Positions 7,751 to 27,288 of a stretch of 30,996 nt of DNA are shown here, piece after piece. The stretch lies in the IMG/VR virus record IMGVR_UViG_3300032006_001967, positions 1 through 30,996 of that record; one strand, given 5' to 3'. The notes beneath the pieces are model-generated. The model ran no database searches and had not been told where the DNA came from. It was given only the letters and a program-made list of their open reading frames with translations. The DNA comes from a virus. The first letter of the stretch is position 1; each line of letters begins with the position of its first letter. Made by a program: the position numbers and the translations under genes.

Positions 7751-8133
7751 TCTTCAACGCTTTCATTAAAAGGAAGTTCTACGTAGTTTAGATTGTTGAG
7801 CTCACACCACTCCACTAGGGCTGCATCCCGCTTCTTTTGGTTGACAAAGTCCTGCGCACTAGTATGATAGAGTGTGTTGAACTTATAGTGCTGCGACCCG
7901 TGAACCTCGACTACTGTCTTTATAGTGTTAATGTAGAAGTCGAGGAAGCCAGACTGATTCCTGCGTAGCTGAAAAGGGACCTCCTCCATAATTTGGAGTG
8001 CCGGATAAAGGTCTTTCAAGAGGCACCTAGCTTTGAGGTGAAGCTTGGAGCGGGGACGCTGATCGTTTGAGCGAACAACGTGCCCCGCCGTTCTCCAAGT
8101 ATATATATTGCCGTCTAGGTCTTTAATCTTCAA
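7717..8133 (-). CDS. Vsr/DUF559-like nuclease, TTG start
   Basis: A 138-aa protein with the fold signature of very-short-patch-repair-like (DUF559-type) PD-(D/E)XK nucleases: an early Glu in MEEVPFQLRR, Asp in GFLDFYINT, and E-x-H in VVEVHGSQHYKF, followed by a helix (QKKRDAALVEWCELNN) and NYVELPFNE. The reading frame is open upstream to 8262 inside the protease gene, but the first plausible start is the TTG at 8131-8133, giving MKIKDLDGNIYTWR. AAGG lies 8 bases ahead and the overlap with the protease stop is then only 11 bases. Probably nicks or cuts DNA during recombination or repair; target unknown. Confidence 0.78.
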   Translation of the reverse strand: MKIKDLDGNIYTWRTAGHVVRSNDQRPRSKLHLKARCLLKDLYPALQIMEEVPFQLRRNQSGFLDFYINTIKTVVEVHGSQHYKFNTLYHTSAQDFVNQKKRDAALVEWCELNNLNYVELPFNESVEEWKLRIQPQTS

Positions 8134-9091
8134 TGGGTCGCCTTGGCAAAAATGGTGAGATCTGCTCAGGAGTTGTAGAATGTCGAAAAAGGAAGGGGAA
8201 TCTAGCGGAGCCCGGCGAAGACTTGCCTTTCTTCCCGCCCTTCGAATCAATTGTACCCTCAATAGGCAGCTTTAGAATGTCCTCATAGGACGGAGTGGCT
8301 GCGTTTTGATCAAGAGCCCATAGAACGCCGTTTGACTTAGCATATTTACGCATACGTCTGACGGGAACGATAAGATTAAACGTTTCTCCCGCTCCTCTCA
8401 CGAGCATCCCAACGTAGTGACCCTCGTGTCCCTTGGTCCTTTCCGAAAGAAAAACGCCACCTCCTGACGATCCGGGGAAGCCGGGGCACGACGTTTGGTC
8501 AAAGATGACTCCGTCACCAGTCCCTAGGTCCAAAACTCTGCCAATTTGTGACAAAATTCCTCGCGTCATCGAATTACTGCCCACTTGGCCGAGCAGACTA
8601 CCTACGTGGTAGAGCTCCGTCCCAATGGGTACAGAATCGTCTGATGCATGGAAGATCGTGGTCTTATCGATGAAGCCCTTCTTTCTAATCATTAGGAGGG
8701 CCAAGTCTTCGCCGTTATCAGCATCAGAATATTTGATAACCTTGGCTTCCATTTTGATTTCGCCAACACGCCTGCCATTTTCAACAAGCTCCTTGACAAT
8801 CTGTGCATCTTTAAATTCTACAATCTTGGTGGTACGCCCGTCCTTAATGACCGTTCTTACAGAGCGAAGGCCATCTACAACGTGTGCGGCGGTCCAGACA
8901 AAATTGACCTTCTCCTTTTTTCCGCTTGAGTTCGTGACCTCTCGCGTAACAATAACTCCAGATCCCTCTCCGGCGAAGCTCTTAACCGTCACAGAAACGT
9001 CCTGTAAGTGTTGATAGAGGTCCTTGTTGGGGGCCTGAGCCATAGAGGTACTCGCAAACAAAATAACCAGCGTCAAGCTCTTTCTAATCAT
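8123..9091 (-). CDS. secreted trypsin-like serine protease
   Basis: A 322-aa protein with a clear Sec signal peptide (MIRKSLTLVILFASTSMAQA, cut after about residue 20), then an S1/HtrA-type protease domain. The triad is visible: His70 in WTAAHVV, Asp129 in NGEDLALLMI, and Ser209 in PGSSGGGVF. No PDZ domain follows; the tail from about residue 280 is basic and Pro/Ser-rich. The product should act outside the cytoplasmic membrane. That is unexpected because it is encoded directly behind recA and before a nuclease, in the replication operon. The ATG at 9089-9091 has AGG 7 bases upstream and starts 4 bases after the recA-like stop. Substrate unknown. See the 773-aa protease at 24967-27288. Confidence 0.88.
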   Translation of the reverse strand: MIRKSLTLVILFASTSMAQAPNKDLYQHLQDVSVTVKSFAGEGSGVIVTREVTNSSGKKEKVNFVWTAAHVVDGLRSVRTVIKDGRTTKIVEFKDAQIVKELVENGRRVGEIKMEAKVIKYSDADNGEDLALLMIRKKGFIDKTTIFHASDDSVPIGTELYHVGSLLGQVGSNSMTRGILSQIGRVLDLGTGDGVIFDQTSCPGFPGSSGGGVFLSERTKGHEGHYVGMLVRGAGETFNLIVPVRRMRKYAKSNGVLWALDQNAATPSYEDILKLPIEGTIDSKGGKKGKSSPGSARFPFLFRHSTTPEQISPFLPRRPIED

Positions 9092-16379: not shown

Positions 16380-17000
16380 TTACCAGTTGTAGCGTGCCGC
16401 GTAGCCAGTGTTGACCGGATTCGGACTTCCCTGCTGGAAGGTCAGGCGCCCCGGTTGGCTTTGACTAGGATTGGCAGCAACATCAACGCCAGAAGCCCGC
16501 ATGGTTCCCGCGTTGTCTACTTCGTTGTCAATGTTCCACGCGCCAGAGGAGGCGTTGCTTGGAACACTGGTTTCCCACGTGCCATTGAACTCGTTCCAAT
16601 AGTTGTTGCGAACGGCAAATTTGTAGTAGTACGTTCGAAGAACATCTAGCTGGAGTGGAGTGTAGGCCACGTTAGCAGTATCGGACGAGCCACCCTGAAG
16701 AAGGGTGTTGGACTCGCCAGCGATTGTGGTCTGCGCTCTAACAATAACTTGGAGACCAGAGTTGAAAACTCCGGGGACTGCGCCTTCTACAGGCCCAACG
16801 CCGGAAACAATCGTTGTGATAGGATTGCCTTCGCCAAGAGAAGAACTGGCAAACTTGCCGGTCTCGGAGATGTTTCCAGCAAACCTAATGTTACCCTGAT
16901 CGTTGTCAATCTGGCTGGGGTAACCATCGGGTCCATACACGCCGGTTAGCGGGGAAGTACCAGTCGTGAACGGCCCTGTAATGTTTGTAATAAACGCCAT
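16380..17000 (-). CDS. probable virion/beta-rich protein, 206 aa
   Basis: A 206-aa protein rich in Gly, Ser, Thr, Asn and aromatic residues, with few charged ones and no cysteine, as in phage fibre, decoration or capsid-associated proteins. N-terminal MAFITNITGPFTTGTSP and C-terminal GYAARYNW. It has its own ribosome site (GAGG 8 bases ahead), a 73-base leader gap, and a strong terminator immediately after, which suggests independent, abundant expression. No signal peptide. No named family recognised; structural role is inferred. Confidence 0.72.
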   Translation of the reverse strand: MAFITNITGPFTTGTSPLTGVYGPDGYPSQIDNDQGNIRFAGNISETGKFASSSLGEGNPITTIVSGVGPVEGAVPGVFNSGLQVIVRAQTTIAGESNTLLQGGSSDTANVAYTPLQLDVLRTYYYKFAVRNNYWNEFNGTWETSVPSNASSGAWNIDNEVDNAGTMRASGVDVAANPSQSQPGRLTFQQGSPNPVNTGYAARYNW

Positions 17001-17073
17001 AGTAAATACCTCGTTACACGAAGCTCTCTGTTCCTTTCAGTCCGAACATATTGAGGTCCTTTCCTACTACTTA

Positions 17074-17547
17074 TTACACCAAATCATTTTCATGCGGATC
17101 TCTTTTTTGAGATTTAACATGTTCTATCATATTGTCTCTTACTCGACTCATGACAGTGCGGTCTACAAACATTTTGCCAACACCTATCCGGAAGCGATAA
17201 GGGGTCAAAATGTCGAGAGTTTCCACGCCTTCGGTGGGGCCGATAATATTATAATAATCTTCCGTAAGTCTAAAGTTGGAGTGTCCAACCCAAAATTTAA
17301 ACTTTCTGCTTGCTAGGGTGTCATCTGTAAGAGGTAGCATCCCATAAGGGGTCATTACCCCCTTTATGGGCACTAGCGACTCGCTTTCCTGATGCTCAGC
17401 TTGTGCGTCAAAATCGGTATCTGACCACCCTTCCTCTTCTTCTGAGTCCTCCTGAAGGTTGTCAATTACGTCTTCTGCCAATTCAAACGCATCCATCCAT
17501 TTTTCCCAGTAAACGTCATGTCCGGTCGGGGGGGGAGGAGTAGTCAT
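17074..17547 (-). CDS. hypothetical protein, 157 aa
   Basis: A protein starting MTTPPPPTGHDVYWEKW, with an acidic middle (QEDSEEEEGWSDTDFD) and a predicted alpha/beta C-terminal half. The ATG at 17545-17547 is chosen because GAGGTG lies 4 bases upstream; an ATG 12 bases earlier lies inside the TS-like gene's last codons. It starts 8 bases after the TS-like gene ends. No family or motif recognised. Confidence 0.7.
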   Translation of the reverse strand: MTTPPPPTGHDVYWEKWMDAFELAEDVIDNLQEDSEEEEGWSDTDFDAQAEHQESESLVPIKGVMTPYGMLPLTDDTLASRKFKFWVGHSNFRLTEDYYNIIGPTEGVETLDILTPYRFRIGVGKMFVDRTVMSRVRDNMIEHVKSQKRDPHENDLV

Positions 17548-17555
17548 GTCGCACC

Positions 17556-18314
17556 TCACATCAAAATAGGGCTGAAATCAAGGCGGGGATGTGGATTGTA
17601 ATTGTGAACTGTCGCGTGTTTTCTAGACCATTTAAAAATGCTGTCATTAAAGCCGCTCGTAACAATGGGAAGTTCTCTCGGGAATCTCTTTATCTGACTT
17701 TCCGCATCATCGATATGGGCTTCTCGGATATAGCAGTCTGCGAACGTTCCGTGTAACGCTCCGGGTTTCAGACCGCTAGCCTCGGAGAGTAAGAGCAGCA
17801 GCGTGGCGTATAATGCTATATTGATGGGGAGCCCACGCGCAAGCTCCGCACTTCTCTGATACCACGCAAGATTAAGGGTATCGTCGGACACTACTACATT
17901 CCAAAGAATGCGGTAGGGCTTGAGAGACATCTTATCCAGCTGCGAAGGATTCCATGAGGTGCAGAGCAGGGTTGGGTCAGCCGGGTCTTTTTGTAAAGTG
18001 TCAATTATTCGCTTTAGTTGGTCTACGCCGATATTGGCAGGCGTTTCGTCTTCAGGCCCCCACGATTGGTTGAACTTTCTCCATTGATAGCCGTCTATAG
18101 GTCCGAGCTTTGGGGATGTGACTCCATGAATAAGACCCTCTAGACCAGCCCACGCTAGGTCAATCGGAACTTCATTTGTGGTGAGAAGGGGAAAGCCACC
18201 TGACATATGATGTCTAAAAGATTCTCCGAAATAGCTGAGAACTCTGCCATTTTCAGATTCTTTCCAGCGCCCGTTGCTCAGCGTATTGTCCAGAATGTCG
18301 AGGTAGTTTTTCAT
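17556..18314 (-). CDS. thymidylate synthase-like protein lacking the catalytic Cys
   Basis: A 252-aa ThyA-family protein, slightly shorter than E. coli ThyA (264). The TS landmarks are present: LGPIDGYQWR (Arg near the folate side), YQRSAELARGLPINIALYA (Arg154, Ser155 phosphate ligands, Asn165), and ALHGTFADCYIREAHID. But the catalytic motif PCHxxxQ reads PYRILWN, giving Tyr134 and Arg135 in place of Cys and His, confirmed in the nucleotide codons TAC CGC. By my alignment the sugar-contacting His and Tyr near residues 195-197 are also changed (Tyr, Arg). It cannot use the standard TS mechanism; it may have a different activity or be a binding protein. Overlaps the 155-aa gene by 4 bases. Confidence 0.88.
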   Translation of the reverse strand: MKNYLDILDNTLSNGRWKESENGRVLSYFGESFRHHMSGGFPLLTTNEVPIDLAWAGLEGLIHGVTSPKLGPIDGYQWRKFNQSWGPEDETPANIGVDQLKRIIDTLQKDPADPTLLCTSWNPSQLDKMSLKPYRILWNVVVSDDTLNLAWYQRSAELARGLPINIALYATLLLLLSEASGLKPGALHGTFADCYIREAHIDDAESQIKRFPRELPIVTSGFNDSIFKWSRKHATVHNYNPHPRLDFSPILM

Positions 18315-18742
18315 GACTCAGGCCTCATCCGATAGAAGCTAAAGACATCTTTGGGGTCTACGGCATCTTTACTAGAGGACTCTATTTCATGGTCGTACAC
18401 CTGTTTCCAGCAAGTGATGGAATCTAAGACGAACTTTATCTTATCTTCGTCGCCTTCAGAGCAAAGGCGAAGGGCTTCCACAAAATAATCCGATAGCATT
18501 CCTGCATTTAACAGATAAAGGGTCATCCCCAGAAATTCAGCATATTCTTTTTGTGTAGAAAAGCAATCAGCCCCTATCGCAAAGTTTCCGTTTTGATCAA
18601 CCTGAACCACAAACTCAACTATGGGATCGTCTATTATATTTTCTTGAGAAATAGGCGTATCGCTAGAAGAAATTTTATTAAACTTTTTTCTTACGGTAGA
18701 AAGAATTTTTGCGAGCATCTTGAGCCTTTTATACCGGGACAT
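18311..18742 (-). CDS. hypothetical protein, 143 aa
   Basis: A soluble protein with a basic N-terminus (MSRYKRLKMLAKILS) and a mixed helical C-terminal body; no family recognised. Two starts are possible: ATG 18740-18742, 4 bases after the guaC stop, or ATG 18716-18718 (MLAKILSTVRKK), which has the better ribosome site (AAAGG, 6 bases away). It sits between GMP reductase and the TS-like gene and overlaps the latter by 4 bases. Function unknown; operon position suggests nucleotide metabolism or regulation. Confidence 0.65.
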   Translation of the reverse strand: MSRYKRLKMLAKILSTVRKKFNKISSSDTPISQENIIDDPIVEFVVQVDQNGNFAIGADCFSTQKEYAEFLGMTLYLLNAGMLSDYFVEALRLCSEGDEDKIKFVLDSITCWKQVYDHEIESSSKDAVDPKDVFSFYRMRPES

Positions 18743-18746
18743 GGTA

Positions 18747-19883
18747 TTATACACCCAAATCGCCGGTGCTCTGGTCAAAGTGGGTGCGATTCACACGCAC
18801 GAACTCTGAGCATTTTGCCATATCTTTCAAGCATGTGGCTCCAATGTAGGAGCAGGCTGAGCGTATACCTCCTAGAAGGTCCTGCACTACAAGCTTTACG
18901 GGACCTTTGTATGGAATCTTTTTAACACGACCCTCCGAGGCGCGATAATCTTTAACATCACCACCGTGCTTCTTCTGTGCAGAGTGAGATGACATCCCGT
19001 AAAAACACAGGGCCGTTTTAACCATCTTCTCACCCAAAGTAAACCCCCCTTGGGGGTTGGGTCTCATTTCACGACTCTCCTCCCAGTCCCCTTCGCACTC
19101 GGCTGTCCCAGCGAACATGCCGCCCAGCATCACAAAGTCTGCGTTAGCACCAAAGGCTTTGCAAACATCTCCTGCCGTTCGACATCCTCCGTCAGCACAA
19201 ATAAGACCCATCCTTTTTTCGTCTGACTTAAGGCCGTGTGCGGCATGAGCACACTCTTCAATTGCTGAAAGCTGTGGGTAGCCTACTCCTGTCTTTAGCC
19301 TAGTTGTACAGACTGAACCGGGGCCGATTCCTATTTTGACTATATCTACTCCTCCGTGCAAAATGAGCTCCTGTACCATTTCAGGGGTACAAACATTTCC
19401 GGCCATTATAATAGATGATGGAAATTCTTTTCGAACGCTGTTGCAAAAGTTAACAAAGTCATCGGTGTATCCATTCGCCACATCTATGCAGATGTTGGGG
19501 CAAACTTTTGAGAAGGCCACAACTTCCCTAAGCTTTTTAATGTCGCCATCTTTGATCCCCATACTAAACCAGCAATTTTCAAGTGGGATGGAGGTTTTCA
19601 TGTCTATGTAGCTATTTGAAAAAAAGGTAGCTAATTCTTCACTATCATAGTGCTTGTGGAGGCATGTAATCATTCCAAAAGTTTTTAACACCAAAGACAT
19701 GGCGATGGTTCCAGTCGTATCCATGTTTGCCGCCATAATTGGCGTGCCCTCCCAGACTCTTTGGCTATGATAAAATTTAAAGAATCTATTTAGATCGACA
19801 TTTTTTCGAGACGCAGTCTTGGTTCTGTGCGGAACCAGTAATACATCATCAAAGTCTAGCTTTGTCTCTTGATTAATCTTCAC
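18747..19883 (-). CDS. guaC: GMP reductase
   Basis: A 378-aa enzyme of the IMPDH/GMPR family, reducing GMP to IMP and ammonia with NADPH. Diagnostic: LDFDDVLLVP at the N-terminus and the catalytic loop GIGPGSVCTTRLKTGVGYPQ, where Cys192 is the nucleophile; GVGYPQ rather than GVGVPQ, with no CBS domains and this length, points to GMP reductase instead of IMP dehydrogenase. The start codon is GTG (19881-19883) with AAGGA 8 bases ahead, overlapping the glycosyltransferase stop by 11 bases. It would drain guanylate into the adenylate branch. Phages seldom carry this gene. Confidence 0.9.
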   Translation of the reverse strand: MKINQETKLDFDDVLLVPHRTKTASRKNVDLNRFFKFYHSQRVWEGTPIMAANMDTTGTIAMSLVLKTFGMITCLHKHYDSEELATFFSNSYIDMKTSIPLENCWFSMGIKDGDIKKLREVVAFSKVCPNICIDVANGYTDDFVNFCNSVRKEFPSSIIMAGNVCTPEMVQELILHGGVDIVKIGIGPGSVCTTRLKTGVGYPQLSAIEECAHAAHGLKSDEKRMGLICADGGCRTAGDVCKAFGANADFVMLGGMFAGTAECEGDWEESREMRPNPQGGFTLGEKMVKTALCFYGMSSHSAQKKHGGDVKDYRASEGRVKKIPYKGPVKLVVQDLLGGIRSACSYIGATCLKDMAKCSEFVRVNRTHFDQSTGDLGV

Positions 19884-20943
19884 CGATTGATTCCTTTATT
19901 TTTTGGGCCGTCTTGTCCCAAGAGAAGTCGACGGCTGTCTGTACGCCGCCCTCATTTACCAGAAGTCTAGACTCTCGCCATTCATTATAAACGCTTCGCA
20001 TGTGGCTCACGATAGAATCAAAGGGGTTCCCCTCTAGAGACGCCCATTCACCCACTTCTCCGTTAAACCATTTCCCGTCATAGGCATCCTCCATAGAGTC
20101 GATCTCCACTAGGAGAGAGTTCTCTTGAGTACAAAACTCAGTGTGGGCTGAATAGTTAGTGGTTATGACGGGCTTTCCGCACGACATCATTTCAAGCAAT
20201 TCTAAATTCCACCCCTCTGCCCTACTGGGGAATATCCCACAAGTGGACTGCTTCATTATGGAGGCTACCTCCGCATGGCTCCCAAGCCTATCTATAATAT
20301 TTACACGGGGGTCTGATCTGTAGAAAACTTCCCATTCAGATTTCTCTTTAGGGCTCAGAAATGGATTTGTGGGCAGCATGCATAGTAGTACGTCCTCTTC
20401 TGAGGGGAAGGCTGCTTTAAACGCTCTTAGTAAGACATCATGGCCCTTGCGAACCTCCCACTTTCCACAGTTTAAAAAGATGCATTTATCTGTAGGTGTA
20501 TTTCCATTCTCATTAAAGACGGTTCGGTCCACTCCCAGAGGGCAAACGTGTACCGGCACCGCCCCCTTAATGTTGTCGTTGACTACCGAGGCCGCCCATT
20601 TGGACGCCACTATAACGCCATCGGTGGATTTTAGATGGTGTATTCTCTTATCGTCAAACTTAGTGATTTCAAAAAAGGGAAAGCCGAAGAGAGCTCCTCT
20701 CCCTATCCTTTCGGCCATGTCAAATTCATGCCATACCTTTAAGCATGGAGCATTGTAGTCAAATACCCCTCTTCTGGAAATAGCCTCCTGAACAATGTTT
20801 GCGTCTTCTTGAGTAGATAGATCCGGATTTCCGATGGGGAAACACGCTACGTTTGTTGTACGGGACAAAGATTTTAGTATGTTTAGACCCGCAACTCCGT
20901 AGCCCAGACTATTGATGGGGGTCATCAGGTTCATATTCTTCAT
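19873..20943 (-). CDS. GT4-type glycosyltransferase
   Basis: A 356-aa glycosyltransferase of the GT-B, GT4 group. It starts MKNMNLMTPINSLGYGVAG; the C-terminal donor-binding half shows GKWEVRKGHDVLLRAF and, later, SRAEGWNLELLEMMSCGKP, including the typical E-x7-E pattern and a CGKPVI(T) strand. No signal or membrane segment, so it is cytosolic. Start: ATG 20941-20943, GAGGAA 7 bases upstream. Possible acceptors are DNA bases, a virion protein or host surface glycan; the sequence does not decide. The sugar-nucleotide genes at the right edge could supply its donor. It overlaps guaC by 11 bases. Confidence 0.87.
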   Translation of the reverse strand: MKNMNLMTPINSLGYGVAGLNILKSLSRTTNVACFPIGNPDLSTQEDANIVQEAISRRGVFDYNAPCLKVWHEFDMAERIGRGALFGFPFFEITKFDDKRIHHLKSTDGVIVASKWAASVVNDNIKGAVPVHVCPLGVDRTVFNENGNTPTDKCIFLNCGKWEVRKGHDVLLRAFKAAFPSEEDVLLCMLPTNPFLSPKEKSEWEVFYRSDPRVNIIDRLGSHAEVASIMKQSTCGIFPSRAEGWNLELLEMMSCGKPVITTNYSAHTEFCTQENSLLVEIDSMEDAYDGKWFNGEVGEWASLEGNPFDSIVSHMRSVYNEWRESRLLVNEGGVQTAVDFSWDKTAQKIKESIGED

Positions 20944-20985
20944 GCTCAGATTCCTCAATAAAATGTGAACCAATATAGGCAGAAA

Positions 20986-23130: not shown

Positions 23131-23742
23131 CTATATACCGTATAGGTCTTGTATTCTTATAACATCATCAATTACTTGTGGCTCAGTCACTTCGGGAGTG
23201 TAGTAGGGGAACATAAGGGCCCCCTCATAAGGGGAGTGGTCTAGGCCTAGAAGATGCCCAATCTCGTGAGCTGCTACGTTTTGTAATAATACATCTTGTC
23301 TTGGGTTATCGATTTCTGTAACCCATTCTTCTGATTTGTCAAATTTAGTTAAAAGCTGGCCGTTCCAGTCTGAAGTGGAAGGGAGAAAGGCCCACGCGAG
23401 AATGTCACCCCTTACGCCAAACCCCTCATCTTTGTCCTTACTAACGTCAATTATAATATCTGCACCATCGTCGTCGTAAATTTTTTCAAAGCTTAAAGGC
23501 GTTATGTCGGACCATGACTTAAAAGCTTTTAGCCAGCACCTATCCCACTCATGCCTCTTCATATCTCCCGTGTCTCTGCCTTTTATGTAGTAAGTCAGGT
23601 GGCTTTTACCCCACTTGGCTGCCCCTGTCGCAGACTTAAGAGACGATCTTATGGGGCACCTGTATCGGTAGGAAGGGTCAGCTCCCAAGCTTAGACCGCA
23701 GCACATAGCGAGGGAAAGGCTCAGGAACTGTCGACGTTTCAT
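23131..23742 (-). CDS. secreted matrixin-type zinc metalloprotease
   Basis: A 203-aa M10-family metalloprotease. The zinc site is AAHEIGHLLGLDHS, with His159, His163, His169 and catalytic Glu160; a Met-turn follows at about residue 177 (EGALMFPYY). The N-terminus MKRRQFLSLSLAMCCGLSLGAD is a signal peptide with RRxFL, a Tat-like twin-arginine motif, so it may be exported folded. It lacks the pro-domain and hemopexin domain of animal MMPs, as bacterial matrixins do. GGAG lies 5 bases before the ATG. With two trypsin-like proteases in the window it forms part of an exported protease set; target unknown. Confidence 0.88.
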   Translation of the reverse strand: MKRRQFLSLSLAMCCGLSLGADPSYRYRCPIRSSLKSATGAAKWGKSHLTYYIKGRDTGDMKRHEWDRCWLKAFKSWSDITPLSFEKIYDDDGADIIIDVSKDKDEGFGVRGDILAWAFLPSTSDWNGQLLTKFDKSEEWVTEIDNPRQDVLLQNVAAHEIGHLLGLDHSPYEGALMFPYYTPEVTEPQVIDDVIRIQDLYGI

Positions 23743-24966: not shown

Positions 24967-27288
24967 TTAGAATTGAAAGCCCATTCTCTTTAAGAATTCG
25001 GTTTTTACCCATTCTTCTATTGAATATGCCATATCTTTATACCCCAATACGTTAAAATCACCCCTTCTTAGCTTCTTTACAGCCTCTTTATACAGGAATC
25101 CTATCATGGCTTCGTGGTAAAGGGCATGACTTTCGATAGTTGCGGTGGATATTCTTTTTAAGAACTGGTCTCTTACATAAGTATCTATAGCGTCTGCTGC
25201 CTTACGCTGATAGTTAACCTTAAGGTTCTTACCCTTGCTCTTTACGATTAGGCGATCTTCTCTAAGAAGAGATATGGCGTCCTTGTAAAGATGAGCATAA
25301 AAGGCCAGCTCTGTGATGCACTCTCCATCGACAGCCTTGAGATCTATAAACTGTTTAATCCTTCCTGTGGCGTCGGGAAATTCAGGATTTGACTTCACTT
25401 CGTCCAATATACTTTCTCCGCAGTCACAGTCACAGTCCTCATGCGTGTCGTGAGGCTGTTCTGGAACCGGAAGGGGGTCTTTTAGGACTCTTCGTGAGTC
25501 CTCGTCTAAAACGACATGAACTTGTTGAGGAGGGGATTCTTTAGGGGGCTGTTGGCGCAATAAATTTAAGCTTATTTCACTATCCAGCTTTTGCTCCAGA
25601 GTGTCCACCTTGTGGTTAACCTCTCCTATTGCCGCTCCTAGTTTTTCATCTAGAATACTACCCACCTTGTCTTGCAGGAAATCAGCAAGGGCTCCCATGT
25701 CAGGTGGTGCTACGGGAGTGGCAACGGGGGGAGGCTCTTCGGGCTCCGGTACGTGAGGCTTGTTGTCGTTTGCAATTTTTTTATTGGGCGGATTGAATGC
25801 TTCGTCCACTTTCTTTTTTCCCCTAATTTTCCAGTAAAGAGAAAAAATCCACACAAGAACCGCTCCGATTCCCCCACTAAACCATCCGAGTCGATTGCGT
25901 TGAGTTCTCACTTCGTCAATTCCTGCCTGCGAAGATTTCTGTAGCTCTTCTATAGTGGAAAGGCTGCCCTGTAGCTCTTTATCCTTATTGGATAGAGACT
26001 CATTAAGTTTTTGAAGATCAGCTAAATGGCTTGAAATTTCTCCTTGTAGCTGCTCAATCTTATCTTGATTTCCAGCAGCGTTTTGCGTTAAAGAGTTTAT
26101 CTCGCTAAGCTTAGATTGGATATCGCCATTAAGTTCGGCAATGGTCTTCTTTAATTCTACCCTTTCCTTTTCAAGCTCCCCGATTCTTTTTTCTAAATCG
26201 GATATCTTGGCCCGTGTGTCGTCGGGAACATAGTTTGGAGGAACTTTACCAAAAGGATTTTCCCCTTCCCCGTCACCTCCCGGTGAGCCATCAGGGTCTT
26301 CATCAGGATTGGGGAAGGGAATGTCTGGGTTGGGGGTGGGGTTGTCAGGAGGGGAAGGGTTCGGGTTTTGAGGAGGTATGAAAGGGGGACAAATGCCGAA
26401 CGGGCATTCGATGTCTAGAAGAACATTCCATTCAACAATCCTAACATTTTTGTGCTCGTTAGGTATGATTACGGACTTCCACTGAACCCCTTGCTTAAAA
26501 GTCTGGAGATAGTAGTAGCCATTAGACCCTCGGGCATAGTAGGCTCGCTTCCTTATAGTCTTTCCTTCTATTTTTTTTGCCTTAGCCGTCTGGGCTTCGC
26601 CTGCAAACTTCCAAGTTGAAGGAACCTTCTCAAACTGGTTCTCGTTGACTTCGCCCTTTATGGCTCTCCAGAAATTAGAAATATGTATCGCGCCCCCTTT
26701 ATCATCATCAACTCTCCACGTAAGGACTGCTGCAAGATGGGTATTCCCATTTATAAGTGTGTAGACGCCAGATCCGCTTTGCCCTCCGAGCGGGGGAGGT
26801 GTGAACAGAACACGGCTTTGCGAGCCAGCAGAAAGGGCGTGCCCCTCCCACAATTGCAACCAGCGACCTTGAGGGCATCCGGCAGACGCAATATAATCGT
26901 CTTTTTTTACAAGGTGGGTCGGTGGCGCTAGAGGAACAATGCGAGGGGGCATGCTTCCGAATAGGGATTTGGGCACTCTTATTATAGCGAAGTCAAGGAC
27001 ACGCTTCTCCGAGTAGGCCCTCCAGATCACCTCTCCCGCAAGGGCAGGAGTCTTACGTCCATACCTAAAAAACTCGCAAGTAACACGACGACTATTTCCA
27101 ACAACGTGAGCGTTGGTGAGGATATAAATAAATTGCTTATCCTGAGCTATTGAGGTGCCGCTCCCTCTTGCGTCGTCAGCATTAACTCTACAAGAGGCTT
27201 CTCCTATTTCGTTAAGGGTCAAAAACTTCGCAGAAGCCGAAGAGCATAGGGCCAAAAAGATACACACGGAGAGAAACGCAAGTCTCAT
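24967..27288 (-). CDS. membrane-anchored trypsin-like protease with coiled coil and cytoplasmic tail
   Basis: A 773-aa multi-part protein. Residues 1-20 are a Sec signal peptide. Residues about 25-215 form an S1-type protease: His61 (TNAHVV), Asp99 (RVLDFAII), Ser171 (GGQSGSGVY). Then come a second small globular segment, a Pro/Asn/Gly-rich linker (about 303-358), a coiled coil (about 359-465), and a transmembrane segment (about 468-487) followed by RGKKK. The rest (about 490-773) is predicted cytosolic, starting Pro-rich, with a Cys cluster DCDCDCG at 619-624 and helical repeats at the end. If the signal is cleaved the protease lies outside and the tail inside. An odd architecture for a phage. 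Confidence 0.85.
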   Translation of the reverse strand: MRLAFLSVCIFLALCSSASAKFLTLNEIGEASCRVNADDARGSGTSIAQDKQFIYILTNAHVVGNSRRVTCEFFRYGRKTPALAGEVIWRAYSEKRVLDFAIIRVPKSLFGSMPPRIVPLAPPTHLVKKDDYIASAGCPQGRWLQLWEGHALSAGSQSRVLFTPPPLGGQSGSGVYTLINGNTHLAAVLTWRVDDDKGGAIHISNFWRAIKGEVNENQFEKVPSTWKFAGEAQTAKAKKIEGKTIRKRAYYARGSNGYYYLQTFKQGVQWKSVIIPNEHKNVRIVEWNVLLDIECPFGICPPFIPPQNPNPSPPDNPTPNPDIPFPNPDEDPDGSPGGDGEGENPFGKVPPNYVPDDTRAKISDLEKRIGELEKERVELKKTIAELNGDIQSKLSEINSLTQNAAGNQDKIEQLQGEISSHLADLQKLNESLSNKDKELQGSLSTIEELQKSSQAGIDEVRTQRNRLGWFSGGIGAVLVWIFSLYWKIRGKKKVDEAFNPPNKKIANDNKPHVPEPEEPPPVATPVAPPDMGALADFLQDKVGSILDEKLGAAIGEVNHKVDTLEQKLDSEISLNLLRQQPPKESPPQQVHVVLDEDSRRVLKDPLPVPEQPHDTHEDCDCDCGESILDEVKSNPEFPDATGRIKQFIDLKAVDGECITELAFYAHLYKDAISLLREDRLIVKSKGKNLKVNYQRKAADAIDTYVRDQFLKRISTATIESHALYHEAMIGFLYKEAVKKLRRGDFNVLGYKDMAYSIEEWVKTEFLKRMGFQF

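What the first reader, a model, noticed from the sequence alone, without database searches (positions are those of the whole stretch)
17556..18314. Thymidylate synthase homologue with the catalytic Cys-His replaced by Tyr-Arg
The ThyA motif PCHxxxQ reads PYRILWN; the codons are TAC CGC, where Cys-His would be TGC CAC. Phosphate-binding QRS and the Asn of LPINIALY are kept, but the dUMP sugar contacts (His, Tyr) also appear changed. Known phage TS-fold pyrimidine hydroxymethylases keep the Cys. So this may be a different base or nucleotide chemistry, a ligand-binding or regulatory protein, or an inactive relic that is nevertheless intact in length and sits in an operon with guaC and a glycosyltransferase.
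Basis: partly seen in the sequence, partly recalled or inferred. Interest (0 to 1): 0.82.

Follow-up and report, generated by a model that had tools for sequence, protein, structure and literature searches.

The report
Dead thymidylate synthase kept as scaffold
An uncultured phage carries a DNA-building enzyme gene (thymidylate synthase) whose catalytic machinery has been almost entirely replaced while the protein's shape is preserved, which points to a former enzyme kept for a new, probably non-catalytic, job that is still unknown.

Summary
Observation confirmed. ORF 17556-18314 (minus strand, 252 aa) is a ThyA homologue (PF00303, E 9e-47) reading PYR where ThyA has PCH. The loss goes far beyond two residues: 16 of 22 conserved ligand/catalytic columns are gone (R21, K48, E58, the I79/W80/W83 folate wall by deletion, Y94, R126, R127, C146, H147, D169 to E, L172, F176, H207, Y209), while 34 of 41 other conserved columns are kept (Fisher p 2e-5). 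AlphaFold gives a confident ThyA fold (pLDDT 95; Z 33.9 to E. coli TS). Two related phage contigs (L041, L057) carry a ThyA with the catalytic set between the same two neighbour genes, a third (L058) has one cut by the contig end; another relative (L003) has no TS. So Tyr-Arg is not a family feature; this copy, almost certainly unable to act as ThyA, arose within one lineage. Simulated neutral decay to the same active-site loss always produced stop codons and more scaffold loss than seen, so a relic is unlikely. Best reading: a TS-fold pseudoenzyme under selection for its fold, with an unidentified binding or regulatory role. No second member was found; ligand and role are untested.

The parts
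17556..18314 (-). TS-fold protein lacking the ThyA active site (TSL), 252 aa
   Evidence: PF00303 E 8.9e-47; AF2 pLDDT 95.3, pTM 0.93; Z 33.9, 1.5 A over 243 residues to E. coli TS; active-site columns lost 16/22
17910..17918 (-). P-Y-R codons CCC TAC CGC at the place of ThyA P-C-H (Y134, R135)
   Evidence: sequence, pattern match ending at 17918, alignment
17850..17858 (-). retained QRS (Q153-R154-S155), phosphate-binding motif of ThyA
17724..17732 (-). Y195-I196-R197 at the place of ThyA H207-x-Y209
   Evidence: alignment; coordinates computed from the residue numbers
18108..18116 (-). point of the in-frame deletion (residues S67-P68-K69) that removes the I79/W80/W83 folate wall; orthologues carry about 20 residues plus a family-specific insertion here
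   Evidence: coordinates computed from residue numbers
18311..18778 (-). small unknown protein upstream of TSL; weak homologues in the same place upstream of the TS in L041 and L057, and in L003
17074..17559 (-). unknown protein downstream of TSL, 4-bp overlap; homologues directly downstream of the TS in L041, L057, L058 and present without TS in L003

Best explanation
TSL descends from the canonical ThyA that sits in the same slot in sister phages. In this lineage the dUMP- and folate-handling residues were replaced and the folate wall deleted, while the fold was kept by selection. It therefore most likely works as a TS-fold pseudoenzyme: a folded, probably dimeric, non-catalytic protein whose opened and re-lined pocket (kept Gln153-Arg154-Ser155 and Asn165; new Tyr134, Arg135, Tyr195, Arg197, Arg160) or surface binds a ligand, nucleic acid or protein partner and so regulates rather than catalyses. 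Shown here: homology, fold prediction, loss pattern, intact syntenic orthologues, rejection of simple neutral decay. Inferred: dimerisation, that it does no chemistry at all, and that it binds something; the ligand is unknown.
For: ThyA homology and confident ThyA fold. Ligand columns lost 16/22 against 7/41 for the other conserved columns, p 2.1e-5; without the deleted columns 13/19 against 7/41, p 2.2e-4. The residues needed for thymidylate synthase or pyrimidine hydroxymethylase chemistry that could be checked (nucleophile Cys, E58, Y94, R126/R127, folate wall) are gone; their roles are from PMC6400193 and PMC6754364. Sister phages L041 (44% identity, same 4-bp gene overlap) and L057 have intact catalytic sets in the same gene order, and the truncated L058 keeps PCH, RR, W80, W83, H207 and Y209. 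Neutral simulation from the L041 gene to the same active-site loss: 0 of 1500 runs without a stop (mean 8.4), scaffold columns lost mean 23.6 (minimum 9) against 4 observed. GC and GC3 match the neighbouring genes.
Against: No second sequence with the same replaced active site was found in IMG/VR, GTDB genomes or INPHARED by the patterns and searches used, so conservation of the new state is untested. No expression, binding or partner evidence exists. The simulation assumes the active-site loss happened after loss of function and uses one simple mutation model; no dN/dS could be made because the nearest full-length syntenic relative is 44% identical.
Confidence: 0.55

Rival explanations
1. Relic: the phage obtained dTMP another way (for example ThyX, present in other phages sharing its guaC), ThyA became dispensable, and TSL is a decaying gene whose frame happens still to be open.
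For: ThyX occurs in two guaC-sharing phage contigs, G003 and G004, and another relative, L003, has no TS in the slot. TSL is a singleton with no known relatives sharing its state.
Against: Losses are concentrated in ligand-contact columns; simulated neutral decay to the same loss gives several stops and much more scaffold loss; confident fold prediction, tight gene overlaps on both sides. G003 and G004 share guaC but gave no DnaB or h17074 match, so they may not be close kin.
Confidence: 0.18
2. Partner of an active ThyA: TSL forms mixed dimers with a host or phage ThyA. Because each ThyA site needs two Arg from the other subunit, which TSL lacks, a mixed dimer would have no active site, giving inhibition or regulation of dTMP synthesis.
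For: TS-fold enzymes take phosphate-binding Arg from the opposite protomer (PMC6400193, PMC6754364); TSL has Pro-Thr there and keeps the overall fold.
Against: No interface test was possible; no active ThyA is known in this phage (31 kb fragment) or its unidentified host; a phage with its own dCMP deaminase and RNR would gain little from stopping dTMP synthesis unless it also has ThyX.
Confidence: 0.14
3. New enzyme: the re-lined pocket catalyses a different, folate-independent reaction on a nucleotide, for instance in base modification.
For: Active-site columns replaced rather than scattered damage; new Arg/Tyr residues cluster at the pocket positions; glycosyltransferase and GuaC genes are nearby.
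Against: No candidate nucleophile or cofactor site; loss of the wall probably leaves the pocket open; the GT and guaC genes occur together in L003 without any TS, so they are not functionally tied to TSL.
Confidence: 0.1
4. Sequencing or assembly artefact in an ordinary ThyA.
For: Single metagenomic record.
Against: About 16 active-site changes and an in-frame deletion, with the frame open throughout and the scaffold conserved.
Confidence: 0.02

Closest known systems
Thymidylate synthase ThyA (PF00303), e.g. E. coli ThyA; nearest in context the phage orthologues L041, L057, L058
   Same: Sequence family, fold, gene position in related phages, QRS and N177
   Different: No catalytic Cys, E58, Y94, R126/R127, D169, H207, Y209; folate wall deleted
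T4-type dCMP hydroxymethylase and other TS-fold pyrimidine hydroxymethylases
   Same: TS fold in a phage nucleotide-metabolism setting
   Different: Those keep Cys148, Glu60, Tyr96 and the cofactor site (PMC6400193; for divergent phage members); TSL keeps Asn at the base-specificity position and lacks the rest
Catalytically dead enzyme paralogues that act as regulators (e.g. trypanosomatid AdoMetDC prozyme, dead deoxyhypusine synthase paralogue)
   Same: Dead copy of a metabolic enzyme kept under selection
   Different: Those have demonstrated active partners and function (abstracts); none is shown for TSL, and none is a thymidylate synthase

Membership tests
Thymidylate synthase ThyA | TS sequence family and fold | tested here: met
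   PF00303 E 8.9e-47; Z 33.9 to E. coli TS
Thymidylate synthase ThyA | catalytic Cys146 (nucleophile on C6 of dUMP) | tested here: not met
   Tyr134
Thymidylate synthase ThyA | R126'/R127' phosphate grip from the other subunit, and R21 | tested here: not met
   Pro114, Thr115, Glu21
Thymidylate synthase ThyA | folate site: E58, I79, W80, W83, K48 | tested here: not met
   Gly57, deletion, Asn47
Thymidylate synthase ThyA | Y94, D169, H207, Y209 | tested here: not met
   Asp74, Glu157, Tyr195, Arg197
Thymidylate synthase ThyA | Q165-R166-S167 and N177 | tested here: met
Thymidylate synthase ThyA | dUMP methylation activity | not testable with these tools
   needs complementation or assay
Phage dCMP/dUMP hydroxymethylase | catalytic Cys, Glu60 and cofactor wall | tested here: not met
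   roles from PMC6400193
Phage dCMP hydroxymethylase | Asp at the base-specificity position (T4 Asp179, E. coli N177) | tested here: not met
   Asn165; role of Asp179 from PMC6400193
TS-fold pseudoenzyme | fold kept with catalytic residues lost | tested here: met
TS-fold pseudoenzyme | a non-catalytic function | not testable with these tools
   no partner, ligand or expression data

The most novel reading that the evidence does not exclude
A thymidylate synthase recast in one phage lineage as a binding or regulatory protein (or a new enzyme) with a remodelled, opened pocket: a TS-fold protein with a new job, evolved in place from an active orthologue.
Probability: 0.6. Interest if true: 0.6.

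Novelty: new variant of a known kind. Interest (0 to 1): 0.5.

Why it matters
ThyA is among the most conserved enzymes, and even very divergent phage TS-fold proteins in the sample keep the nucleophilic Cys. A fold-preserving copy with most of the active site erased, while intact orthologues sit in the same gene slot of related phages, is a clear case of an enzyme turning into something else, and gives a ready pair (TSL and the L041 TS) for testing what the TS fold can do without its usual chemistry.

Tried and rejected
Closest-relative search with P0001 alone found nothing in IMG/VR. Two IMG/VR scans used mistyped patterns (one N too many), so they returned an arbitrary sample of TS genes; these proved useful as controls and contained the syntenic orthologues. 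The corrected pattern for a Phe/Leu/Ser/Tyr codon at the Cys position, with standard spacing and the QRS..GxPxNIA motif, gave only one hit, an ordinary TS in a shifted register. In genomes it gave 7 hits, of which only one was a TS, again ordinary. A W-N..M.L.P-Y pattern gave no TS. The companion pattern for codons beginning A/C/G was not run correctly, so other substitutions in viruses are not excluded. An earlier PYR pattern did not even match the window and is void. The idea that low active-site counts in a few viral TS marked further dead copies was rejected: they keep PCH and look like second exons of split genes or truncated starts. Literature search found no described phage TS lacking its Cys; the library is open-access only.

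Full report
What is there. The window is a 30,996-bp IMG/VR virus record, a linear fragment. The ORF at 17556-18314 on the minus strand encodes 252 aa and matches only thymidylate synthase (PF00303, E 8.9e-47; phage TS family phrog_160; solved TS structures). It overlaps by 4 bp the genes before and after it. It is the only TS match in the record, which has no ThyX match either; as the record is a fragment this says little about the phage.

The active site. Aligned with E. coli ThyA and 101 viral TS proteins, PCH is PYR, and the flanks are ungapped. Of 63 columns at least 85% conserved, 22 are ligand or catalytic positions (list from PMC6754364 and PMC6400193, plus R21, Q165 and Y209 from general knowledge). 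TSL has lost 16 of these 22 but only 7 of the other 41 (Fisher p 2.1e-5). At 95% conservation it keeps all 15 non-ligand columns and loses 10 of 16 ligand columns. The deleted stretch removes I79, W80 and W83. The next lowest viral TS keep 14 or more of the 22, and six of the lowest-scoring ones were read and still have PCH; several look like second exons of split genes or truncated starts. Eleven very divergent phage TS-fold proteins, most of them less similar to ThyA than TSL is, all keep C146, R166, S167, D169, Y209 and E58. H147 does vary among them, so the Cys loss is the telling one, not the His loss.

Structure. AlphaFold2 from 51 sequences gives pLDDT 95.3 and pTM 0.93. The best PDB matches are all TS, with Z 33.9, 1.5 A over 243 residues to E. 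coli TS; the best named viral matches are TS too. The alignment was made of ordinary TS, so the model says the sequence is compatible with the fold; it does not show the pocket.

Relatives. Sampled TS loci contained syntenic orthologues: L041 has upstream small protein, TS, downstream protein in the same order, with the same 4-bp overlap; L057 has the same order; L058 has TS then the downstream protein. Their TS are 37-44% identical to TSL. L041 and L057 have R21, E58, W80, W83, RR, PCH, D169, H207 and Y209; L041 also has Y94 (L057 reads LGPLGYSHGWR there). L058 begins inside the gene at the contig start and keeps E58 and the catalytic residues after it. The upstream protein is only weakly similar between phages, so that flank rests on position as well as sequence. 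A quick tree placed TSL with L057, L152 and L184 (SH-aLRT 99), but TSL is a long branch and the careful search was not finished. L003 (178-kb contig, DnaB 59% identical) has the flanking genes but no TS anywhere in the record. G003 and G004, which share guaC, have ThyX, but gave no match to DnaB or the downstream protein. No relative of the downstream protein is in the INPHARED phage set at the sensitivity used.

Decay or reuse. Starting from the L041, L184 or L152 gene, random substitutions were applied until as many ligand columns were lost as in TSL (1500 runs each). Every run had at least one stop (means 8.4 to 8.8). From L041, scaffold columns lost averaged 23.6, minimum 9, against 4 observed; from L152, P was 0.003. 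This rejects simple neutral decay after inactivation, under a simple mutation model. It does not separate a binding protein from a new enzyme, nor a functional state that ended only recently.

Conclusion. As a thymidylate synthase or known pyrimidine hydroxymethylase the protein is very probably inactive. Selection on the fold with wholesale replacement of the active site fits a pseudoenzyme with a new role. The ligand, partner and role remain unknown. Tyr-Arg is not a family feature: it belongs to this one sequence so far.

Noticed in passing
L041 2124-2795, L057 3874-4548, L003 14359-15027, L058 1300-2001; window near 17000-17074: A ClpP-like protease gene (PF00574 in L057) and a further unknown gene lie between the homologues of window genes 17074-17559 and 16380-17000 in the relatives; both are missing from the window at that place.
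   Followed up: partly
window 18747-20973; L003 8001-10177: guaC and a GT4 glycosyltransferase are adjacent in both phages but in swapped order, and in L003 without any TS.
   Followed up: partly
L003 1171-2475: This relative carries a gene resembling the DUF1501-type proteins I associate with Planctomycetes, hinting at such a host; not tested.
   Followed up: no
window 8123-9091, 24967-27288, 23131-23742: Two trypsin-like protease genes (the first with a 58% identical counterpart in L057) and a matrix-metalloprotease-like gene on one phage fragment.
   Followed up: no
L160, L113, L126, L037, L071: Several viral TS genes look split (second exon only, some preceded by unrelated coding sequence), suggesting intron-interrupted td-like genes.
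   Followed up: partly
BFVD fold search: Distant TS-fold matches include proteins of avian herpesviruses and uncharacterised phage proteins; whether they keep the catalytic Cys was not checked.
   Followed up: no
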